Positions 1 through 14,681 of a stretch of 34,483 nucleotides of DNA are shown in pieces. Made by a program: the position numbers and the translations under genes. Each line of letters starts with the position of its first letter. Positions within the stretch are counted from its first letter, which is position 1. Source of the stretch: an uncultured Eubacteriales bacterium (GTDB taxonomy: Bacteria > Bacillota > Clostridia > Oscillospirales > Acutalibacteraceae); contig ONCX01000009.1 in the NCBI GenBank assembly GCA_900316455.1, positions 1 through 34,483 on the forward strand, given 5' to 3'. The notes under the pieces were generated by a model. That model was not told where the DNA came from and ran no database searches. It worked only from the letters and a program-made list of their open reading frames with translations.

Positions 1-180
1 CGCAAGAAGAATCAAAGTATGTCAGGAAGTCCGATGCCGCCATAGTACCGAAGAAACCTTTAAAACAGGCGGAGGAAAGGGTGGCACATTTCATAGCTTA
101 TGAAATGAAGAGCCGTATGCGTTAATAGCGCACGTACGGTTCCGTGAGGGGGGTGGGGTGTAAACCCCACATCTACTCGA
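1..180 (+). mobile_element. Group II intron, 3' end (domains V and VI), cut by the window edge
   Basis: The catalytic domain V is visible at 110-142: an 8-bp lower stem (110-117 with 135-142) containing the AGC triad at 111-113, a 2-nt CG bulge at 133-134, and an upper stem 118-121 with 129-132. A domain VI-like hairpin follows (GTGGGG 153-158 with CCCCAC 165-170) with an unpaired A at 171 as branch-point candidate, so the intron should end near 176-180. A perfect 9-bp hairpin at 87-107 just before domain V may be a short domain IV. An open frame from position 3 to 125 translates to a segment beginning QEESKYVRKSD that resembles leader segments I associate with group II intron ORFs, but no reverse transcriptase motif is present. 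The copy may therefore lack its maturase or have lost it; the missing 5' part is outside the window. Confidence 0.8.
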
Positions 181-208
181 GTAATATCGCATAATGGAGG
201 GGACTGTG

Positions 209-9337: not shown

Positions 9338-10264
9338 ATGAGTAAACTTGTAAGATGTATAACAACCGATGGACTTGTAATGGCGGCGGCAATAGATTCG
9401 ACGGAAATAGTCCGAAGGGCGCAGGAGCTTCACCGCGCAACTCCGGTGATAACATCAGCGCTTGGCAGACTGCTGACCGGAGCGTCCATAATGGGAAACA
9501 AGCTGAAAGAGGAGAACGCTTCACTTACGCTGAGGATAAACGGCGGAGGTCCTGCGGGTTCGATAATCGCCGTTTCCGACAGCAAGGGCAATGTGCGCGG
9601 CTACGCTCAGGAAGCCGGACTTATCATTCGTCCGGACGCAAAGGGAAAGCTCGACGTTTCCGGAGCGGTCGGCAGGGACGGCACGGTTACGGTTATCAAG
9701 GATTACGGTTACGGACAGCCTTACTGCACACAGACTCCGATAGTTACCGGAGAAATTGCGGAGGATCTCACCGCGTATTACGCAATCAGCGAGCAGGTTC
9801 CTACCATTTTCTGCATAGGCGTGCATTTTGACGAAAAATACAAGCTTGACAAAGCCGGAGGATTGTTGATTCAGCTCATGCCGGCAGCGGATCACCGTGA
9901 GATAGAGAAATTAGAGGAAATGCTTAAAACCATGCCGCCTGTAACGCAAATGCTGCTTGAAGGTAACACGCCGGAGAGGATTCTCGAAAAGACTCTGCCG
10001 GGGTTTGAACTTGAAATATTCGATAGTCAGGAGGTAGAATACCGCTGCGACTGTTCGCTTGAACGTGTGGAAAATGCCTTTATGACTATGCAGCCTGACG
10101 AGATACGCGGTCTTGCCGATGAGAGCGGAAAAGCCGAAGTGCTGTGCCATTTCTGCAATAAGAAGTATTATATCACACGAGAACGCCTTGAAGAGCTTGC
10201 CGTAATTCAGGAGCAGCGGATTGGAAAATCCGACAATGGAATAATTGGCAAACATTACAATTAA
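9338..10264 (+). CDS. hslO: Hsp33 redox-regulated chaperone
   Basis: Hsp33 is a cytosolic holdase switched on by oxidative unfolding of its C-terminal zinc site. The 308-residue protein has the conserved N-terminal core (RCITTDGLVMAAAID, GGGPAGSIIAVSD, GYGQPYC) and all four zinc cysteines: C237 and C239 in the CxC pair, and C270 and C273 in the CHFC pair. The start at 9338 is chosen because AGGAGG (9328-9333) lies just 4 nt upstream; an in-frame ATG at 9311 has no such site. It ends the three-gene operon from 8239. Confidence 0.96.
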   Translation: MSKLVRCITTDGLVMAAAIDSTEIVRRAQELHRATPVITSALGRLLTGASIMGNKLKEENASLTLRINGGGPAGSIIAVSDSKGNVRGYAQEAGLIIRPDAKGKLDVSGAVGRDGTVTVIKDYGYGQPYCTQTPIVTGEIAEDLTAYYAISEQVPTIFCIGVHFDEKYKLDKAGGLLIQLMPAADHREIEKLEEMLKTMPPVTQMLLEGNTPERILEKTLPGFELEIFDSQEVEYRCDCSLERVENAFMTMQPDEIRGLADESGKAEVLCHFCNKKYYITRERLEELAVIQEQRIGKSDNGIIGKHYN

Positions 10265-10350
10265 ATGATAACTGTTTGATGTAATTGAAACAAAAAAGAT
10301 TATTCAAATAGAAATTTTAAAAAAATATGTAATTATTTGTTAAATTAGTC
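10265..10350. other. A/T-rich spacer after hslO
   Basis: This first part of the 386-nt gap between hslO and the response regulator shows no gene, repeat or convincing terminator. The rest of the gap is covered by the promoter, structured RNA, terminator and operator entries that follow. Confidence 0.6.
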
Positions 10351-10379
10351 TTGACTTTTTAAATTTTTTGTAATATAAT
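10351..10379 (+). promoter_or_regulatory. Strong promoter for the structured RNA
   Basis: TTGACT (10351-10356) and a perfect TATAAT (10374-10379) are 17 bp apart, among the best promoters in the window. No protein-coding frame follows before the terminator at 10530-10573, so it most likely drives a small RNA starting near 10386. Confidence 0.8.
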
Positions 10380-10385
10380 TTTTAC

Positions 10386-10573
10386 TGTTGAAAGGGAGAT
10401 ACAGTTATAGTTTTGTAGTTTGTTTTTTAGTTTGTTGATTGGTATATAACTGTCGCGTGACTATTACGCACTCTGTTCTTTCAACGCATAGATTAGATTG
10501 TGTCTTTTTTATATCGTTCCCCATCCACAAATACAAAGCCGTCCTCATAAAAAAGGACGGCTTTGTATTTTTT
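10386..10573 (+). ncRNA. Candidate structured small RNA of unknown class, about 190 nt
   Basis: A promoter and a strong terminator bracket a non-coding stretch that folds well by eye. GTTGAAAG (10387-10394) pairs with CTTTCAAC (10478-10485) as a closing helix. Inside it, ACAGTTATA (10401-10409) pairs with TATAACTGT (10445-10453), and GCGTGA (10455-10460) pairs with TTACGC (10464-10469), making a three-way junction. The large apical loop holds the 9-mer TAGTTTGTT twice (10416-10424, 10428-10436). About 45 unpaired nt link this to the terminator. It lacks the long bulged rod of 6S RNA, and I cannot match it to tmRNA, RNase P, SRP RNA or a known riboswitch. It lies directly upstream of the Spo0A-like regulator; a regulatory link is inference. 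Confidence 0.65.
10530..10573 (+). terminator. Rho-independent terminator of the structured RNA
   Basis: A 16-bp stem (10530-10545 with 10554-10569, core AAAGCCGTCC/GGACGGCTTT) with an 8-nt loop runs into a T-run ending at 10573. Confidence 0.92.
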
Positions 10574-10586
10574 AAATAAATGTGGA

Positions 10587-10603
10587 TTTTTGTAGGTTTT
10601 TGT
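10587..10603 (+). promoter_or_regulatory. Tandem repeat TTTTTGT-AGG-TTTTTGT, operator candidate, copy 1
   Basis: Two direct copies of TTTTTGT have a 10-bp period, one helical turn. They abut the -35 box of the response regulator promoter. The same 17 bp recur exactly at 11448-11464. This position and spacing suit a tandem-binding response regulator, possibly the Spo0A-like protein encoded next. Confidence 0.5.
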
Positions 10604-10631
10604 TGATTTTCACATTTGAATCATGTATAAT
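10603..10631 (+). promoter_or_regulatory. Promoter for the Spo0A-like response regulator
   Basis: TTGATT (10603-10608), a 17-bp spacer and perfect TATAAT (10626-10631). The expected transcription start lies only about 12 nt before the start codon, so the leader is very short and begins close to the ribosome binding site. Confidence 0.6.
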
Positions 10632-10650
10632 TAATCCGAGGTGAATGATT

Positions 10651-11436
10651 ATGCGGAAAGATCTGAGGATTTTGATGATTGAGGACGATCAGGCGCTTTG
10701 TGAAGAATTCAGCAGATGTTTTGCCGGAATTGATGGCATTGAGCTTGTGGCAACTACAAACAGTGAGGGGGACGCGCTTGAATATGTGCGGCAGTTGCAG
10801 CCTGACGCGGTAATATTGGATCTTGAACTGCATACGGGCGAAGGCAACGGAATTAGCTTTTTATCGAGACTTAGCAAACAAAAGAATATAAAAAAGCCGT
10901 ATGTGCTTGTTAATACGAATAATTCGAGCCAGACTACTTATGATATTGCTCGTAAGCTCGGAGCGGATTTTGTGATGTATAAGCACCAGCAAGGGCACTG
11001 TCCGGAAGCAATAGCGGAATTTCTGCTCGCTGTCGCATCAAATTGTGTAGAACAGGCAATTGACAACTCTGATCCCGCGTCTGCGGACGGGGATGATCTT
11101 CCGGAAAGAACGGAGCTGAGAAAACGTATTCTGGAAGAGCTTAACAAGGTATCAGTCAGCCCTAAGCGAAAGGGATATGTTTATCTCGCGGACGCTATAG
11201 AAATAAGCTGCGGTGGATATGTGCCTAATGTGTCGGCGTTGATAGGGGAGAAGTACGGCAAATCCGCCAAAAGCGTGGAGCATGCCATGCAGAACGCTAT
11301 TGACAGCGCGTTTGATAACGCGGATTTTGACGAGTTAGGAAAGCATTACAAGGCGAGGATAAGCGCTAATCGCATATCTCCCACTGTGATGGAATTTATA
11401 GGTTTTTATGCTGCAAAGTTGAAAAATGACAACTGA
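10651..11436 (+). CDS. Response regulator with Spo0A-like C-terminal DNA-binding domain
   Basis: The 261-residue protein has a complete receiver domain (about 1-125): acidic pocket E11-D13, phosphoacceptor D57 in AVILDLEL, T89 and K111. An acidic linker leads to a C-terminal domain (about 152-258) that follows Spo0A closely: SVSPKRKGYVYLADAI corresponds to the GVPAHIKGYLYLREAI region, KSAKSVEHAMQNAIDSAF to the recognition-helix region, and RISPTVMEFI to the KPTNSEFI region. In the recognition helix the arginines of Spo0A are replaced, so it probably reads a different site from the 0A box. ATG 10651 is chosen because GAGGTG (10638-10643) is 7 nt upstream; ATG 10645 is too close. The two GHKL kinases encoded just downstream are its likely partners. 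It is unlikely to be the master Spo0A itself. Confidence 0.85.
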   Translation: MRKDLRILMIEDDQALCEEFSRCFAGIDGIELVATTNSEGDALEYVRQLQPDAVILDLELHTGEGNGISFLSRLSKQKNIKKPYVLVNTNNSSQTTYDIARKLGADFVMYKHQQGHCPEAIAEFLLAVASNCVEQAIDNSDPASADGDDLPERTELRKRILEELNKVSVSPKRKGYVYLADAIEISCGGYVPNVSALIGEKYGKSAKSVEHAMQNAIDSAFDNADFDELGKHYKARISANRISPTVMEFIGFYAAKLKNDN

Positions 11437-11447
11437 GAGAACGTTCC

Positions 11448-11464
11448 TTTTTGTAGGTTTTTGT
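11448..11464 (+). promoter_or_regulatory. Tandem repeat TTTTTGT-AGG-TTTTTGT, operator candidate, copy 2
   Basis: Exact copy of the 17 bp at 10587-10603, now 46 bp upstream of the -35 box of the kinase promoter and just after the response regulator stop. Finding it before both transcription units of this island supports shared control. Confidence 0.5.
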
Positions 11465-11509
11465 AACGGAAGCTGAAAAAAATAATTTCATAAAACCACA
11501 AAAAAGCAA

Positions 11510-11538
11510 TCGACAGGCGCGTAAAAACGTGGTATTAT
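11510..11538 (+). promoter_or_regulatory. Promoter for the GHKL kinase genes
   Basis: TCGACA (11510-11515) and TATTAT (11533-11538) with a 17-bp spacer, each one mismatch from consensus. Transcription would start near 11545, upstream of the terminator-like hairpin at 11578-11624. Confidence 0.6.
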
Positions 11539-11577
11539 AGTCTCGTAAACATGACTGCGAGAATTTTTCATATCACC

Positions 11578-11624
11578 ACCAAAGCCCACTGCCTGAAATT
11601 TGCAGTGGGCTTTGGTCGTTTTTT
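11578..11624 (+). terminator. Strong terminator inside the leader of the kinase genes (attenuator candidate)
   Basis: A perfect 15-bp stem (11578-11592 with 11602-11616, core AAAGCCCACTGC/GCAGTGGGCTTT), 9-nt loop, then CG and six T (11619-11624). It lies between the promoter at 11510-11538 and the kinase start at 11656, and no promoter is visible in the 31 nt between them. The kinases must therefore be expressed by read-through. It also ends transcripts coming from the response regulator gene. I see no clear antiterminator partner in the short leader. Confidence 0.85.
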
Positions 11625-11655
11625 CAGATTAAAAAGAATTGCGGGAGGAAATCAC

Positions 11656-13086
11656 ATGGGACCGTCAATGGTTCAATTGTGCGTTAATCATATCGGCATA
11701 GTACTTTCGGCGTACACGATGTTTTTAAATGCGATGGAAAAAAAATATCCGCGGAGAAGGAAGGCTACAGGCTGCGCGGCGGCATTGGCGACAGGAATTG
11801 CGACGGGCTGTGTATACGATTCGCTACCCGTTATTTGCGTTGTATTTATGCTGATATTGTTTTATATCATCATGGGAGCTGTTTACAAAATCCGGTCGGG
11901 AAAGAATCTTGCGCTGACTTTGGTATCTTTTGGAATAAGCTATGCGCTGTATTATGCAGCAATTTTCACGCTTGTATTTCTTCTGTATCTGAATAAAAAA
12001 GCCGTTTCGGGAAGATTTGAAAAATCAGTGGACGCATGGATCTACATATTACATTATGTGACTGATTTTAGGGGAGGCATAATTACAAGCATATATATAT
12101 TTGCCGTACAGTATTCGCTGCTTGTGCTTCTGATGAGAATCAGACGTATAAAAACGGAATTGATAGAAACGGTAAATGCGGGAAGAAACGAGATACTTGT
12201 TTTTTTATGGTTCGTAATCCTTTCTGTCAGAGGAATATATATGTTTTCCATTCTGACAAGAAGAGATATAAATGCAGTATTAATAATTTGTACATTCCTT
12301 CTTTCGCTTTTATTCTTTATGTTTTACTTCTGGTACAAAAAAGAGCTGAAATTGTTATATGTCACGATGATTCAGGAGAATGAGCTGGATCTTCTGGAAA
12401 AAAGCATAGATTCAAAGGAAGAGCTTATACGCGGTCTGCGTGCGGATAATGAATGCCTTGCCAAAATAATACACAGGGACAACAAGCTCATACCGTCCGT
12501 GATGATGTCGGTGAGGAACGCTGAGGCTGACAGTGAAAGCGCGTGTGCGCTTAATGAAATATATTCGGAACGAAGCGCGGCTCTTTTGAAATATGAATCT
12601 CACGGACGGCAGATATATAATTCGGGAATTGATGAGGTAGACGCGGTGCTTTTGTATCTGGCTGACAGAGCGGCTTCAATGGGAGTTAATTTTGAAGTCA
12701 TTATTCCGGAGGATATCAGCAAAATACCCGATATTATCACACCAAGCGAATTAAACGCAATTCTCGCCGTACTCTGCGAGTATGCGATGACTTCTTCGAG
12801 AGACAGAGAAAACGGCGCTGTCTGCGTTAACATAGACCGGAGCGGCGACGGCTTTTTCATTGAGGTATCTGACAACGGAGAAAAATTCGATATGAAGGCT
12901 CTTAAAGCAATAGGAAAAAAGCGACGTTTCGCAAAACGTAAAGTAAGAGATGAGAGCAATGGCTTGATTCCGTTGTTCACTGTTCTCAGACATACAGGGT
13001 CAAGTCTTACGATAGACGAGTTTCCTCAGAATAAGAAATACGTAAAATCGCTTCGGGTCACATCAGGCATAAATAGCGGCGTATAA
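11656..13086 (+). CDS. Membrane GHKL-family sensor protein A: His box kept, ATPase boxes degenerate
   Basis: This 476-residue protein has about six or seven N-terminal membrane segments (residues 5-235), a coiled coil, and an AgrC/LytS-like DHp-GHKL end. The H box IIHRDNKLIP has the candidate phosphoacceptor H273. In the ATPase part the N box reads LCEYAM, with Y376 where the Mg-ATP-binding Asn should be. The D406/G408 pair of the first Gly box remains, but the second reads SNGLIPLF (434-441) and has lost its glycines. It probably cannot bind ATP normally by itself. Start: ATG 11656 follows GGGAGGAAA; an earlier in-frame ATG (11551) would put the terminator hairpin inside the gene. Its downstream neighbour is a paralog with the opposite losses. 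Confidence 0.85.
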   Translation: MGPSMVQLCVNHIGIVLSAYTMFLNAMEKKYPRRRKATGCAAALATGIATGCVYDSLPVICVVFMLILFYIIMGAVYKIRSGKNLALTLVSFGISYALYYAAIFTLVFLLYLNKKAVSGRFEKSVDAWIYILHYVTDFRGGIITSIYIFAVQYSLLVLLMRIRRIKTELIETVNAGRNEILVFLWFVILSVRGIYMFSILTRRDINAVLIICTFLLSLLFFMFYFWYKKELKLLYVTMIQENELDLLEKSIDSKEELIRGLRADNECLAKIIHRDNKLIPSVMMSVRNAEADSESACALNEIYSERSAALLKYESHGRQIYNSGIDEVDAVLLYLADRAASMGVNFEVIIPEDISKIPDIITPSELNAILAVLCEYAMTSSRDRENGAVCVNIDRSGDGFFIEVSDNGEKFDMKALKAIGKKRRFAKRKVRDESNGLIPLFTVLRHTGSSLTIDEFPQNKKYVKSLRVTSGINSGV

Positions 13087-13127
13087 TATCGTGTGAAATG
13101 GATTTAATACGATGGGAAGTGAAAAAA

Positions 13128-14681
13128 GTGAAAAACGATGTCATAATTCCGTGGCTGGATTTTGGAGTTAAATATATGGTGCTGATATTCAGCATGTATT
13201 ATCTCTTTATGAGGTGCGTCAGCGAAAAACATGATGTAAGAAAAATGACGGCTTACACGTTTTTTTCGGTGGCAATGGGATTGTTTCTTTTTCGGTTCAG
13301 ACTTGCTTTGGGAGAGACTTATATTCTCATGATGCTTATATATTTCGCTCTGACAAACTGCCTTTTGTACCGCAAAGAGATAGAGAGCGGATATGACTCG
13401 GACAATTGTATCAAGCTGCGCGATATTTCGTTGCTTTCGCTTATTTGCTTTGCGTTTTGTGAAGCGCTTTTCTTGATAGTTGGAATAGTTTCGTCCACAA
13501 TGCTTTCTGTTTTTTATTATAATTTTGTCCCGCAGGGACACAATTCCGTGTGGGATTTTTTGAATAATAAACCCGTTCACACCGCCGCCTATGTTTTAAT
13601 GATCTCGATGGTATGGGTTACGACATATCTTGTATCAAGCGTAAAACGGCTCAGGCAGGGATTGATGAACATAGTCAGGCACAGCGTTGCGGGTACGGCT
13701 GCAATGCTTGCGATGTTTTTGCTTGCTGTCGTTATGACATTCAACAGTGTAAGTATTGAAGATGATACGAGAATTTTAAGGACGATACTGTTCAATTTTG
13801 TGACGTTATTCTGCGTAGTTATGGTGTTTTTCACTAAACGTGAGATAAGGTCTGATTATATCAGTCAGATAAGAAAGAGAAATCTGACGCTTATGGAAGA
13901 AATTCTTGAGGAGAAGAATAAGGAAATTGCCAAGGTTGCAAAGGACAACGAGAAGCTTGCGGGAATAATCAGGTGCGATTCCGAATTGCTCGGCACGGTT
14001 ATTGACGGACTTCGCACGGGAGAGAATTCTGAAGGAATGCTGCGGGCAGCTCAGACCGTCGAGGAAATATATTCCGGACGTTGTGAAGCGGTAGCCAATC
14101 TGGAGTCATGCGGTATTTCGATTGAAAAAACCGGAGTCAGTTCAGTAGACAATGTGCTGCTTTATATGGCTTGCAAGGCGGAGAAGAGGGGAGTCGGTTT
14201 TTCAGTCAGTACGCAGCCGGAGGTTGTAAAAATCTTTGATGAAAAAATAGACAGACGAACATTCAATACCATACTTGCTGATCTTGCGGATAACGCAATA
14301 ATTTCCGCAAGGTCGGTGGAAGCTAAATTCGTGGAGGTCAGACTGCTCGACATTGAGGATAAACCGAGGCTTGAGGTTCTTGACAGCGGAGAGAATTTTA
14401 AGCCTGAGGTATTGAAGAATCTTGGCAGGCGGCGTATAACGACCCACGCAAATGACGGCGGCAGCGGAATAGGGCTTATGAATCTCTTCGGAATAATGAA
14501 ACAGACCCAGGCGAGCTTCACAATTGAGGAATATCCTTGTGACGGCAGTAGAGGTAAATATACAAAGTCACTCATCGTTACATTTGACGGCGCGGGTAAA
14601 TACCGGATAATAACCGATCGTGCAGAGGAATTAAAGCGCGAGGTAAAAGGAAGATTTGAAATAATTCCGACAAAAAAGTAA
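13128..14681 (+). CDS. Membrane GHKL-family sensor protein B: ATPase boxes kept, His box lost
   Basis: Paralog of the preceding protein with the same layout: about six or seven membrane segments (residues 5-235), coiled coil, DHp and GHKL ATPase; 517 residues from GTG 13128. That start has a GGAAGTGA ribosome binding site 6 nt upstream and gives an N terminus like that of protein A; ATG 13098, in the same frame, has none. Aligning the DHp helices, EKLAGIIRCDSELLG has R282 at the position of H273 of protein A, so no phosphoacceptor His is present. The ATPase is intact: N389 in LADNAI, D419 with G421 in LDSGENF, and GGSGIG at 444-449. It could phosphorylate protein A in trans. The gene ends at a bidirectional terminator. 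Confidence 0.85.
   Translation: MKNDVIIPWLDFGVKYMVLIFSMYYLFMRCVSEKHDVRKMTAYTFFSVAMGLFLFRFRLALGETYILMMLIYFALTNCLLYRKEIESGYDSDNCIKLRDISLLSLICFAFCEALFLIVGIVSSTMLSVFYYNFVPQGHNSVWDFLNNKPVHTAAYVLMISMVWVTTYLVSSVKRLRQGLMNIVRHSVAGTAAMLAMFLLAVVMTFNSVSIEDDTRILRTILFNFVTLFCVVMVFFTKREIRSDYISQIRKRNLTLMEEILEEKNKEIAKVAKDNEKLAGIIRCDSELLGTVIDGLRTGENSEGMLRAAQTVEEIYSGRCEAVANLESCGISIEKTGVSSVDNVLLYMACKAEKRGVGFSVSTQPEVVKIFDEKIDRRTFNTILADLADNAIISARSVEAKFVEVRLLDIEDKPRLEVLDSGENFKPEVLKNLGRRRITTHANDGGSGIGLMNLFGIMKQTQASFTIEEYPCDGSRGKYTKSLIVTFDGAGKYRIITDRAEELKREVKGRFEIIPTKK

What the first reader, a model, noticed from the sequence alone, without database searches (positions are those of the whole stretch)
11656..14681. 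Two paralogous GHKL kinases with complementary active-site losses
The adjacent proteins align along their whole length. Protein A keeps H273 (IIHRDNKLIP) but has Tyr376 for the N-box Asn and SNGLIPLF in place of the second Gly box. Protein B has Arg282 at the His position but keeps N389, D419 and GGSGIG. Each alone looks defective, while a heterodimer could have B phosphorylate A on H273. Paired loss like this suggests that duplication turned a homodimeric kinase into an obligate heteromer. That mechanism is inference; the residue states are read directly.
Basis: partly seen in the sequence, partly recalled or inferred. Interest (0 to 1): 0.82.

Follow-up and report, generated by a model that had tools for sequence, protein, structure and literature searches.

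The report
Sensor kinase split between twin proteins
In a group of uncultured gut bacteria, a membrane sensor enzyme seems to have been duplicated and each copy then lost a different half of the chemistry, so that the two copies probably have to work together; related species still show the likely steps on the way.

Summary
A (11656-13086) and B (13098-14681) are full-length paralogs (27% identity, E 1e-36). A keeps the phosphoacceptor box (H273) but has Tyr376 for the N-box Asn and no second Gly box; B has Arg for His and an intact ATP site. They follow a REC-Spo0A_C response regulator with intact receiver residues. Elsewhere that regulator usually sits beside one intact kinase. The 18 held genomes of the genus show the stages: 3 single intact, 4 intact + B, 1 intact + A + B, 6 A + B only, 3 intact + truncated paralog, 1 none. 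B is one clade (11 rows) and A-type one clade (7 rows), both 100/100: B lost His first, A its ATP site later. Each of the 7 A genes sits beside a B. Best explanation: a split kinase in which B's ATP domain phosphorylates A's His and A passes the phosphate on. No biochemistry or complex model was available and each loss happened once, so obligate heterodimerisation is inferred. The kind is known (CheA3/CheA4); the paralog route and surviving intermediates are new.

The parts
10645..11436 (+). Response regulator, REC + Spo0A_C DNA-binding domain (263 aa), presumed phosphate acceptor of the pair
   Evidence: Pfam Response_reg 3.5e-12 and Spo0A_C 5e-14; Asp59 and Lys113 kept in 19 of 19 aligned regulators, this one included
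11656..13086 (+). Protein A: membrane sensor kinase paralog with phosphoacceptor His but degenerate ATP site
   Evidence: A-type clade 100/100; kinase fold still matched (AgrC first)
12472..12474 (+). A His273 codon in IIHRDNKLIP
   Evidence: His in 7 of 7 A-type proteins
12781..12783 (+). A Tyr376 codon at the N-box Asn position
   Evidence: Tyr in 7 of 7 A-type proteins and in no other row of the tables
13098..14681 (+). Protein B: membrane sensor kinase paralog without phosphoacceptor His, intact ATP site (a GTG start at 13128 is also possible)
   Evidence: B clade 100/100
13971..13973 (+). B Arg292 codon at the phosphoacceptor position
   Evidence: Arg in 9 of 11 B proteins, Gly in 1, Glu in 1
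14292..14294 (+). B N-box Asn399 codon
   Evidence: Asn in 11 of 11 B proteins
14457..14474 (+). B second Gly box GGSGIG
10587..10603 (+). Direct repeat TTTTTGTAGGTTTTTGT upstream of the regulator: candidate regulator box
   Evidence: exact only twice in the 2.19-Mb genome, both at this locus; 2 further places with 2 mismatches; reversed-pattern control 3 places
11448..11464 (+). Second exact copy of the candidate regulator box, upstream of the A-B genes
11553..11626 (+). Conserved leader or small-RNA-like element ending in an intrinsic terminator, between regulator and A
   Evidence: core found in 14 of 14 loci with duplicated kinases and in none of the 3 single-kinase loci of the genus; aligned; terminator stem with both sides changed at 7 of 14 pairs in 10 sequences

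Best explanation
A and B together form one split histidine kinase. B supplies the ATP-binding catalytic domain; A supplies the phosphoacceptor His and the face that docks the Spo0A_C-type response regulator. B's catalytic domain phosphorylates A's H273 (in trans, within an A:B heterodimer), and A hands the phosphate to Asp59 of the regulator encoded just upstream. The pair arose from one intact kinase, presumably a homodimer. Shown here: the duplication, the order of the losses, the linkage, and opposite patterns of conservation. Inferred: a physical A:B dimer, the phosphotransfer, the regulator as its target, and that neither protein works alone.
For: Residue states. Tree: B one clade (100/100); A-type one clade (100/100), nested among intact partners. 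The 11 genomes with B form one clade on a three-gene species tree, 100/100. Same seven genomes, A versus B mean identity: His box H..H+6 88 vs 73%, ATP lid plus second Gly box 26 vs 80%, N box 65 vs 84%. In the seven A proteins six of the seven box residues H, D, N, K, L, I, P never change (D changes once), although the A subtree is 4.3 changes per site long (my sum of branch lengths). The regulator's receiver residues are kept in 19 of 19, so a phosphodonor is presumably still needed. A and B are 11 bases apart in the window; A-B frames overlap by 1 or 4 bases in G004 and G014, and intact-B frames by 4 in G003, G010 and G013. Precedent for the mechanism: CheA3/CheA4, neither of which autophosphorylates alone and which together form a bipartite kinase (PMC3591291, passages).
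Against: No complex prediction or assay. Each loss is one event, so complementarity rests on one evolutionary history. G008 keeps an intact kinase beside A and B. G007 lacks the kinases altogether, so the system is dispensable in the genus. A still has the G1 Asp, so nucleotide binding is not excluded. The N-box Asn is not strictly kept in this family: Asp stands there in some single-kinase relatives (L053; 8 of 20 loci), although never Tyr. The A-B gap is about 100 bases in G015 and 310 in G012, so tight coupling is not general. pN/pS of A's catalytic domain (0.58) is only moderately higher than B's (0.38), with synonymous sites near saturation, so A's defective domain is still constrained for some other reason.
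Confidence: 0.62

Rival explanations
1. A and B stay separate homodimers and the reaction is between dimers, as with CheA4 acting on CheA3: B phosphorylates A's His without forming a heterodimer.
For: CheA3 lacks the dimerisation and kinase domains, yet CheA3 and CheA4 form a bipartite kinase (PMC3591291, passages). Coil and helix 1 of B have diverged from those of the intact kinases, which could favour homodimers.
Against: A and B keep the same membrane and coil architecture and come from one ancestor; they are neighbours in all seven genomes with A.
Confidence: 0.15
2. A is a pseudokinase that acts as phosphatase, sink or docking partner, charged by some other kinase, and B is a regulator of it without catalysis, somewhat as RetS acts on GacS.
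For: [quoted passage not shown] The truncated paralogs of G002, G016 and G017 lack both His and ATP site, so non-catalytic copies do exist in this genus. G008 keeps an intact kinase too. Other kinases of the cell were not tested as donors.
Against: B's N and G1 boxes are 76-89% identical and lid plus G2 72-80% within the two sets compared, which a non-catalytic B would not need. In the six A+B genomes the family profile finds no further full-length member, only ATP-domain matches of 22-25 bits in three of them; these genomes are 76-98% complete.
Confidence: 0.17
3. Both genes are decaying remnants and the regulator works without them.
For: Fast evolution of A; several MAGs are incomplete; one genome of the genus has no such kinase.
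Against: Complete open frames in 7 of 7 A genes and 10 of 11 B genes, the eleventh running off its contig without a stop; His box conserved in A, ATP site in B; pN below pS in all domains compared.
Confidence: 0.06

Closest known systems
Split CheA kinases: CheA3/CheA4 of Rhodobacter sphaeroides (PMC3591291, abstract and passages)
   Same: His on one protein, ATP-binding kinase domain on the other; neither is expected to work alone; the His protein passes phosphate to the regulator
   Different: Chemotaxis kinases split by absence of whole domains. Here two full-length membrane sensor paralogs lose residues and motifs, and relatives show the steps
Hik36-Hik43 of Synechocystis (PMC7656254, passages)
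   Same: Histidine-phosphotransfer and catalytic parts on two proteins that interact with each other and with one regulator
   Different: A CheA homolog split into two distant genes; not paralogs of one another
RetS/GacS of Pseudomonas (PMC5992135, passages)
   Same: A sensor kinase with a degenerate ATP domain without G boxes acts on another sensor kinase
   Different: GacS autophosphorylates by itself; RetS is a negative regulator
ChrS pseudokinase / HrrS of Corynebacterium (PMC9491836, passages)
   Same: Paralogous sensor kinases; catalytic-domain loss in one; the native forms heterodimerise in two-hybrid assays
   Different: A laboratory-evolved frameshift; the His of the defective kinase is not used; HrrS is intact; no significant heterodimer seen with the truncated form
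Rv0600c/Rv0601c with TcrA of Mycobacterium tuberculosis (recalled; one search gave only listings, none read)
   Same: Recalled: His and ATP parts on neighbouring genes
   Different: Recalled as a gene fission, not paralog degeneration

Membership tests
GHKL sensor histidine kinase | HATPase_c-type catalytic domain | tested here: met
   B over the Pfam cut-off (30.3 vs 26.4 bits); A below it (17.2) but homologous to B; single-chain models of both match kinase structures, with low whole-chain TM-scores
GHKL sensor histidine kinase | Phosphoacceptor His, N, G1 and G2 boxes in one protein | tested here: not met
   A lacks N and G2, B lacks His
Split histidine kinase (CheA3/CheA4 kind) | His and ATP-binding functions on two proteins encoded in one genome | tested here: met
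   by sequence:
Split histidine kinase (CheA3/CheA4 kind) | Neither autophosphorylates alone; together they are active | not testable with these tools
   needs purified proteins
Split histidine kinase (CheA3/CheA4 kind) | The two proteins form a complex | not testable with these tools
   the structure tool predicts single chains
REC-Spo0A_C regulator + GHKL kinase two-component systems | Kinase gene beside a REC-Spo0A_C regulator | tested here: met
   regulator 5' of A in the window; in 56 of the 65 loci L110-L174 a strong regulator hit accompanies the kinase
Spo0A proper | NCBIfam TIGR02875 cut-off 200 bits | tested here: not met
   90.5 bits

The most novel reading that the evidence does not exclude
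A natural series in one genus shows a membrane sensor histidine kinase becoming an obligate heteromer step by step: single kinase; kinase plus His-less paralog B; kinase plus B plus ATP-dead paralog A; and finally A plus B alone. This would be a split sensor kinase made by reciprocal degeneration, and a worked case of a duplication ratchet (constructive neutral evolution) in bacterial signalling. If A and B form a heterodimer, it predicts that the ancestral kinase could phosphorylate in trans.
Probability: 0.5. Interest if true: 0.78.

Novelty: new variant of a known kind. Interest (0 to 1): 0.62.

Why it matters
Split kinases that I could find characterised are CheA-type proteins, and they have been modelled as sources of ultrasensitive or bistable signalling (PMC3591291). 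How homomers become obligate heteromers after duplication is usually argued from end points (my general knowledge). Here intact singles, half-way pairs, a three-gene state and A+B pairs exist in close relatives with the same kind of regulator beside them, so the order of losses and the point of no return can be tested protein by protein.

Tried and rejected
The longer ORF of A (from 11551): set aside, because that start lies before a terminator-like hairpin, while ATG 11656 follows a Shine-Dalgarno-like GGGAGGAAATCAC. First three-gene species tree: rejected, because for incomplete genomes the longest frame of the locus was probably another gene (end branch 0.83); remade with frames chosen by BLAST. 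Independent second case of complementary loss: looked for with the profile in 398 family genomes (E 1e-20), 394 order and 391 class genomes (E 1e-25) (only the best three candidates per genome were scored; of the loci found, 20 stretches were read for motifs) and in the 77 loci; none seen. One tandem triple (G632) keeps His and N in its three copies, one of them broken by frame before the Gly boxes. One search searched with ATP-site motifs, so its loci are biased to intact ATP sites and cannot show A-type orphans; the profile searches do not have that bias. Handedness of the DHp bundle (cis or trans) from single-chain models: judged unreliable, not attempted. Rfam: no family at gathering score at either RNA-like element; the permissive run over 10250-11700 gave only matches far below gathering scores. 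Paper searches for a membrane split kinase made by paralog degeneration; none found among the listed titles and abstract beginnings or the passages read, in a library that lacks most subscription journals.

Full report
What is there. The window lies in an unnamed 2.19-Mb genome (69 contigs, 88.6% complete). On the + strand a response regulator (10645-11436, REC + Spo0A_C) is followed by A (11656-13086) and B (13098-14681). A and B align over 483 columns at 27% identity, E 1e-36. A: His273, Tyr376 for Asn, no second Gly box, G1 Asp kept. B: Arg for His; N, G1 and G2 kept. Pfam HATPase_c scores 30.3 bits for B (cut-off 26.4) and 17.2 for A.

The family. With a profile of the kinases (alignment A1), 17 of the 18 held genomes of the genus match. 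Beyond the genus relatives are sparse: 16 of 398 family genomes, 6 of them of this genus (E 1e-20); 11 of 394 order genomes and 10 of 391 class genomes, the own genome included in each (E 1e-25). A scan of named genomes gave 77 loci, 12 of which have the contig lengths and scores of the genus loci and were dropped before the motif count. In 56 of the other 65 a strong REC-Spo0A_C regulator hit accompanies the kinase, nearly always one kinase; L133 has two regulator-kinase pairs, L113 only a weak receiver hit, and 8 show no regulator, several of them cut by contig ends. The motif table has 102 kinase ORFs: 33 from the genus and 69 others, some of which (for example L167) could be unsampled members of the genus. 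Of the 69, 67 show His at the acceptor column and 2 are cut off before it; 68 have Asn and 1 Asp at the N box. But 66 of the 69 come from the scan that used ATP-site motifs, so their ATP sites are intact by selection. In 20 further stretches from the profile searches, at least four of them contigs already in that set, His is kept in all; the N-box position is Asp in 8 of the 20 loci and Asn in the rest. Tyr at that position, or loss of His, was seen only in the genus.

The series inside the genus (18 genomes). Single intact kinase: G009, G005, G001 (3). Intact kinase + B: G003, G010, G013, G011 (4). Intact kinase + A + B: G008 (1). A + B only: the window's genome, G006, G012, G004, G014, G015 (6). 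Intact kinase + truncated paralog without His and without ATP domain: G002, G017, and G016, where it is broken into two frames (3). None found: G007 (1; 94% complete). In each of the 11 loci with B there is at least one paralog with His, and in each of the 17 loci at least one complete ATP site. The genomes are 76-98% complete, so a missing further copy cannot be excluded.

Order of events. In a maximum-likelihood tree of 45 kinases B is one clade (11 rows, 100/100) and A-type is one clade (7 rows, 100/100). A-type is nested among the intact partners, next to that of G011 (99/94) and then that of G008 (98/88); the truncated paralogs come from a separate duplication. On a three-gene species tree the 11 B-bearing genomes are one clade (100/100). 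So one duplication gave B, which lost His while its partner was intact; the ATP site of a partner was lost later. G008 with intact kinase + A + B suggests a second duplication (intact kinase to A) before loss of the intact copy. But G008's A and B group with those of G015, so the intact copy was either lost several times or regained in G008; I cannot decide. Each loss is one event, so the number of genomes does not multiply the evidence for complementarity; what the seven lineages do show is that the remaining halves have been kept.

Opposite constraint. In the seven genomes with A and B, mean pairwise identity for A and B respectively is: His box H..H+6 88 and 73%; lid and second Gly box 26 and 80%; N box 65 and 84%; membrane part 43 and 53%. 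In the four intact+B genomes plus G008 the His box is 94% in the intact copy and 34% in B. A's new N box, CEY, is the same in 7 of 7, so A's defective domain is not drifting freely; pN/pS is 0.58 for A's catalytic domain and 0.38 for B's, and about equal for the DHp part (0.50 and 0.53), with synonymous sites near saturation. AlphaFold2 single-chain models have mean pLDDT 79.1 (A) and 80.6 (B); in A residues 423-435, where the lid would be, are below 50. Foldseek ranks AgrC first for A (1.7e-7) and LvrB, HK853 and CusS highest for B (4e-6 to 5e-6), with low TM-scores over the whole chain: both still look like kinases.

Mechanism. The best-supported reading is a split sensor kinase: B's ATP domain, A's His, and the upstream regulator, whose Asp59 is kept in 19 of 19 aligned regulators, as acceptor. 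The split principle is established for CheA3/CheA4 (PMC3591291, abstract and passages); that paper counts 1556 of 42417 HisKA proteins without an ATPase domain. A heterodimer would force phosphorylation in trans. Rivals are given in their field. Not shown: binding, phosphotransfer, the regulator as target, obligate dependence.

Novelty. A split kinase as such is known. I found no described case of a membrane sensor kinase split by reciprocal degeneration of tandem full-length paralogs (searches; listings, and passages of five papers). The intermediates in living relatives are the strongest part.

Regulation seen beside it. A 17-base direct repeat, TTTTTGTAGGTTTTTGT, occurs exactly twice in the genome, in front of the regulator and in front of A-B (two further places with 2 mismatches, control 3 places). 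A leader or small-RNA-like element with a terminator lies between regulator and first kinase gene in 14 of 14 genomes with a duplicated kinase and was not seen in the 3 single-kinase genomes. A second RNA-like element lies upstream of the regulator here and its 21-base core is present in 16 of 18 genomes of the genus.

Noticed in passing
window 10385-10578 +: Small-RNA-like gene: TTGACT..TAATAT-type promoter, then about 190 bases ending in ATATCGTTCCCCATCCACAAA and an intrinsic terminator (start inferred by eye). The 21-base core is exact in 16 of 18 genomes of the genus, once each, also in G007 which lacks the kinase. No Rfam family at gathering score. By eye, a TTTTTGT-like repeat often lies before the -35 box.
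   Followed up: partly
window 11500-11626 +: Conserved promoter-like stretch plus GACTGCGAGAATTTTTCATATCACCACC and terminator hairpin between regulator and first kinase gene, in 14 of 14 loci with duplicated kinases. C-rich, possibly anti-Shine-Dalgarno; leader or independent small RNA is open.
   Followed up: partly
L047:6665-7672, L048:3823-4821, L046:434-1432: A second, independent duplication in G002, G017 and G016 gave a truncated paralog with membrane part and helix 1 but no His and no ATP domain; broken into two frames in G016 (G016's pieces were not in the tree).
   Followed up: partly
L287:4124-9901: Tandem triple of this kinase family beside one regulator in G632, a single-contig genome of another family of the order; His and N kept, one copy broken by frame.
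   Followed up: partly
L292, L293, L297, L299, L303-L306, L053: Single-kinase relatives with Asp instead of Asn in the N box and the Gly box kept.
   Followed up: no
L050, L051: In G005 and G001 the regulator is divergently oriented to its single kinase, unlike the other 15 loci of the genus.
   Followed up: no
window 108-182 +: Group II intron match (RF00029, 45.6 bits) at the contig's left end.
   Followed up: no
L133:4476-10868: A contig labelled uncultured Roseburia holds two regulator + kinase pairs of this family side by side.
   Followed up: no
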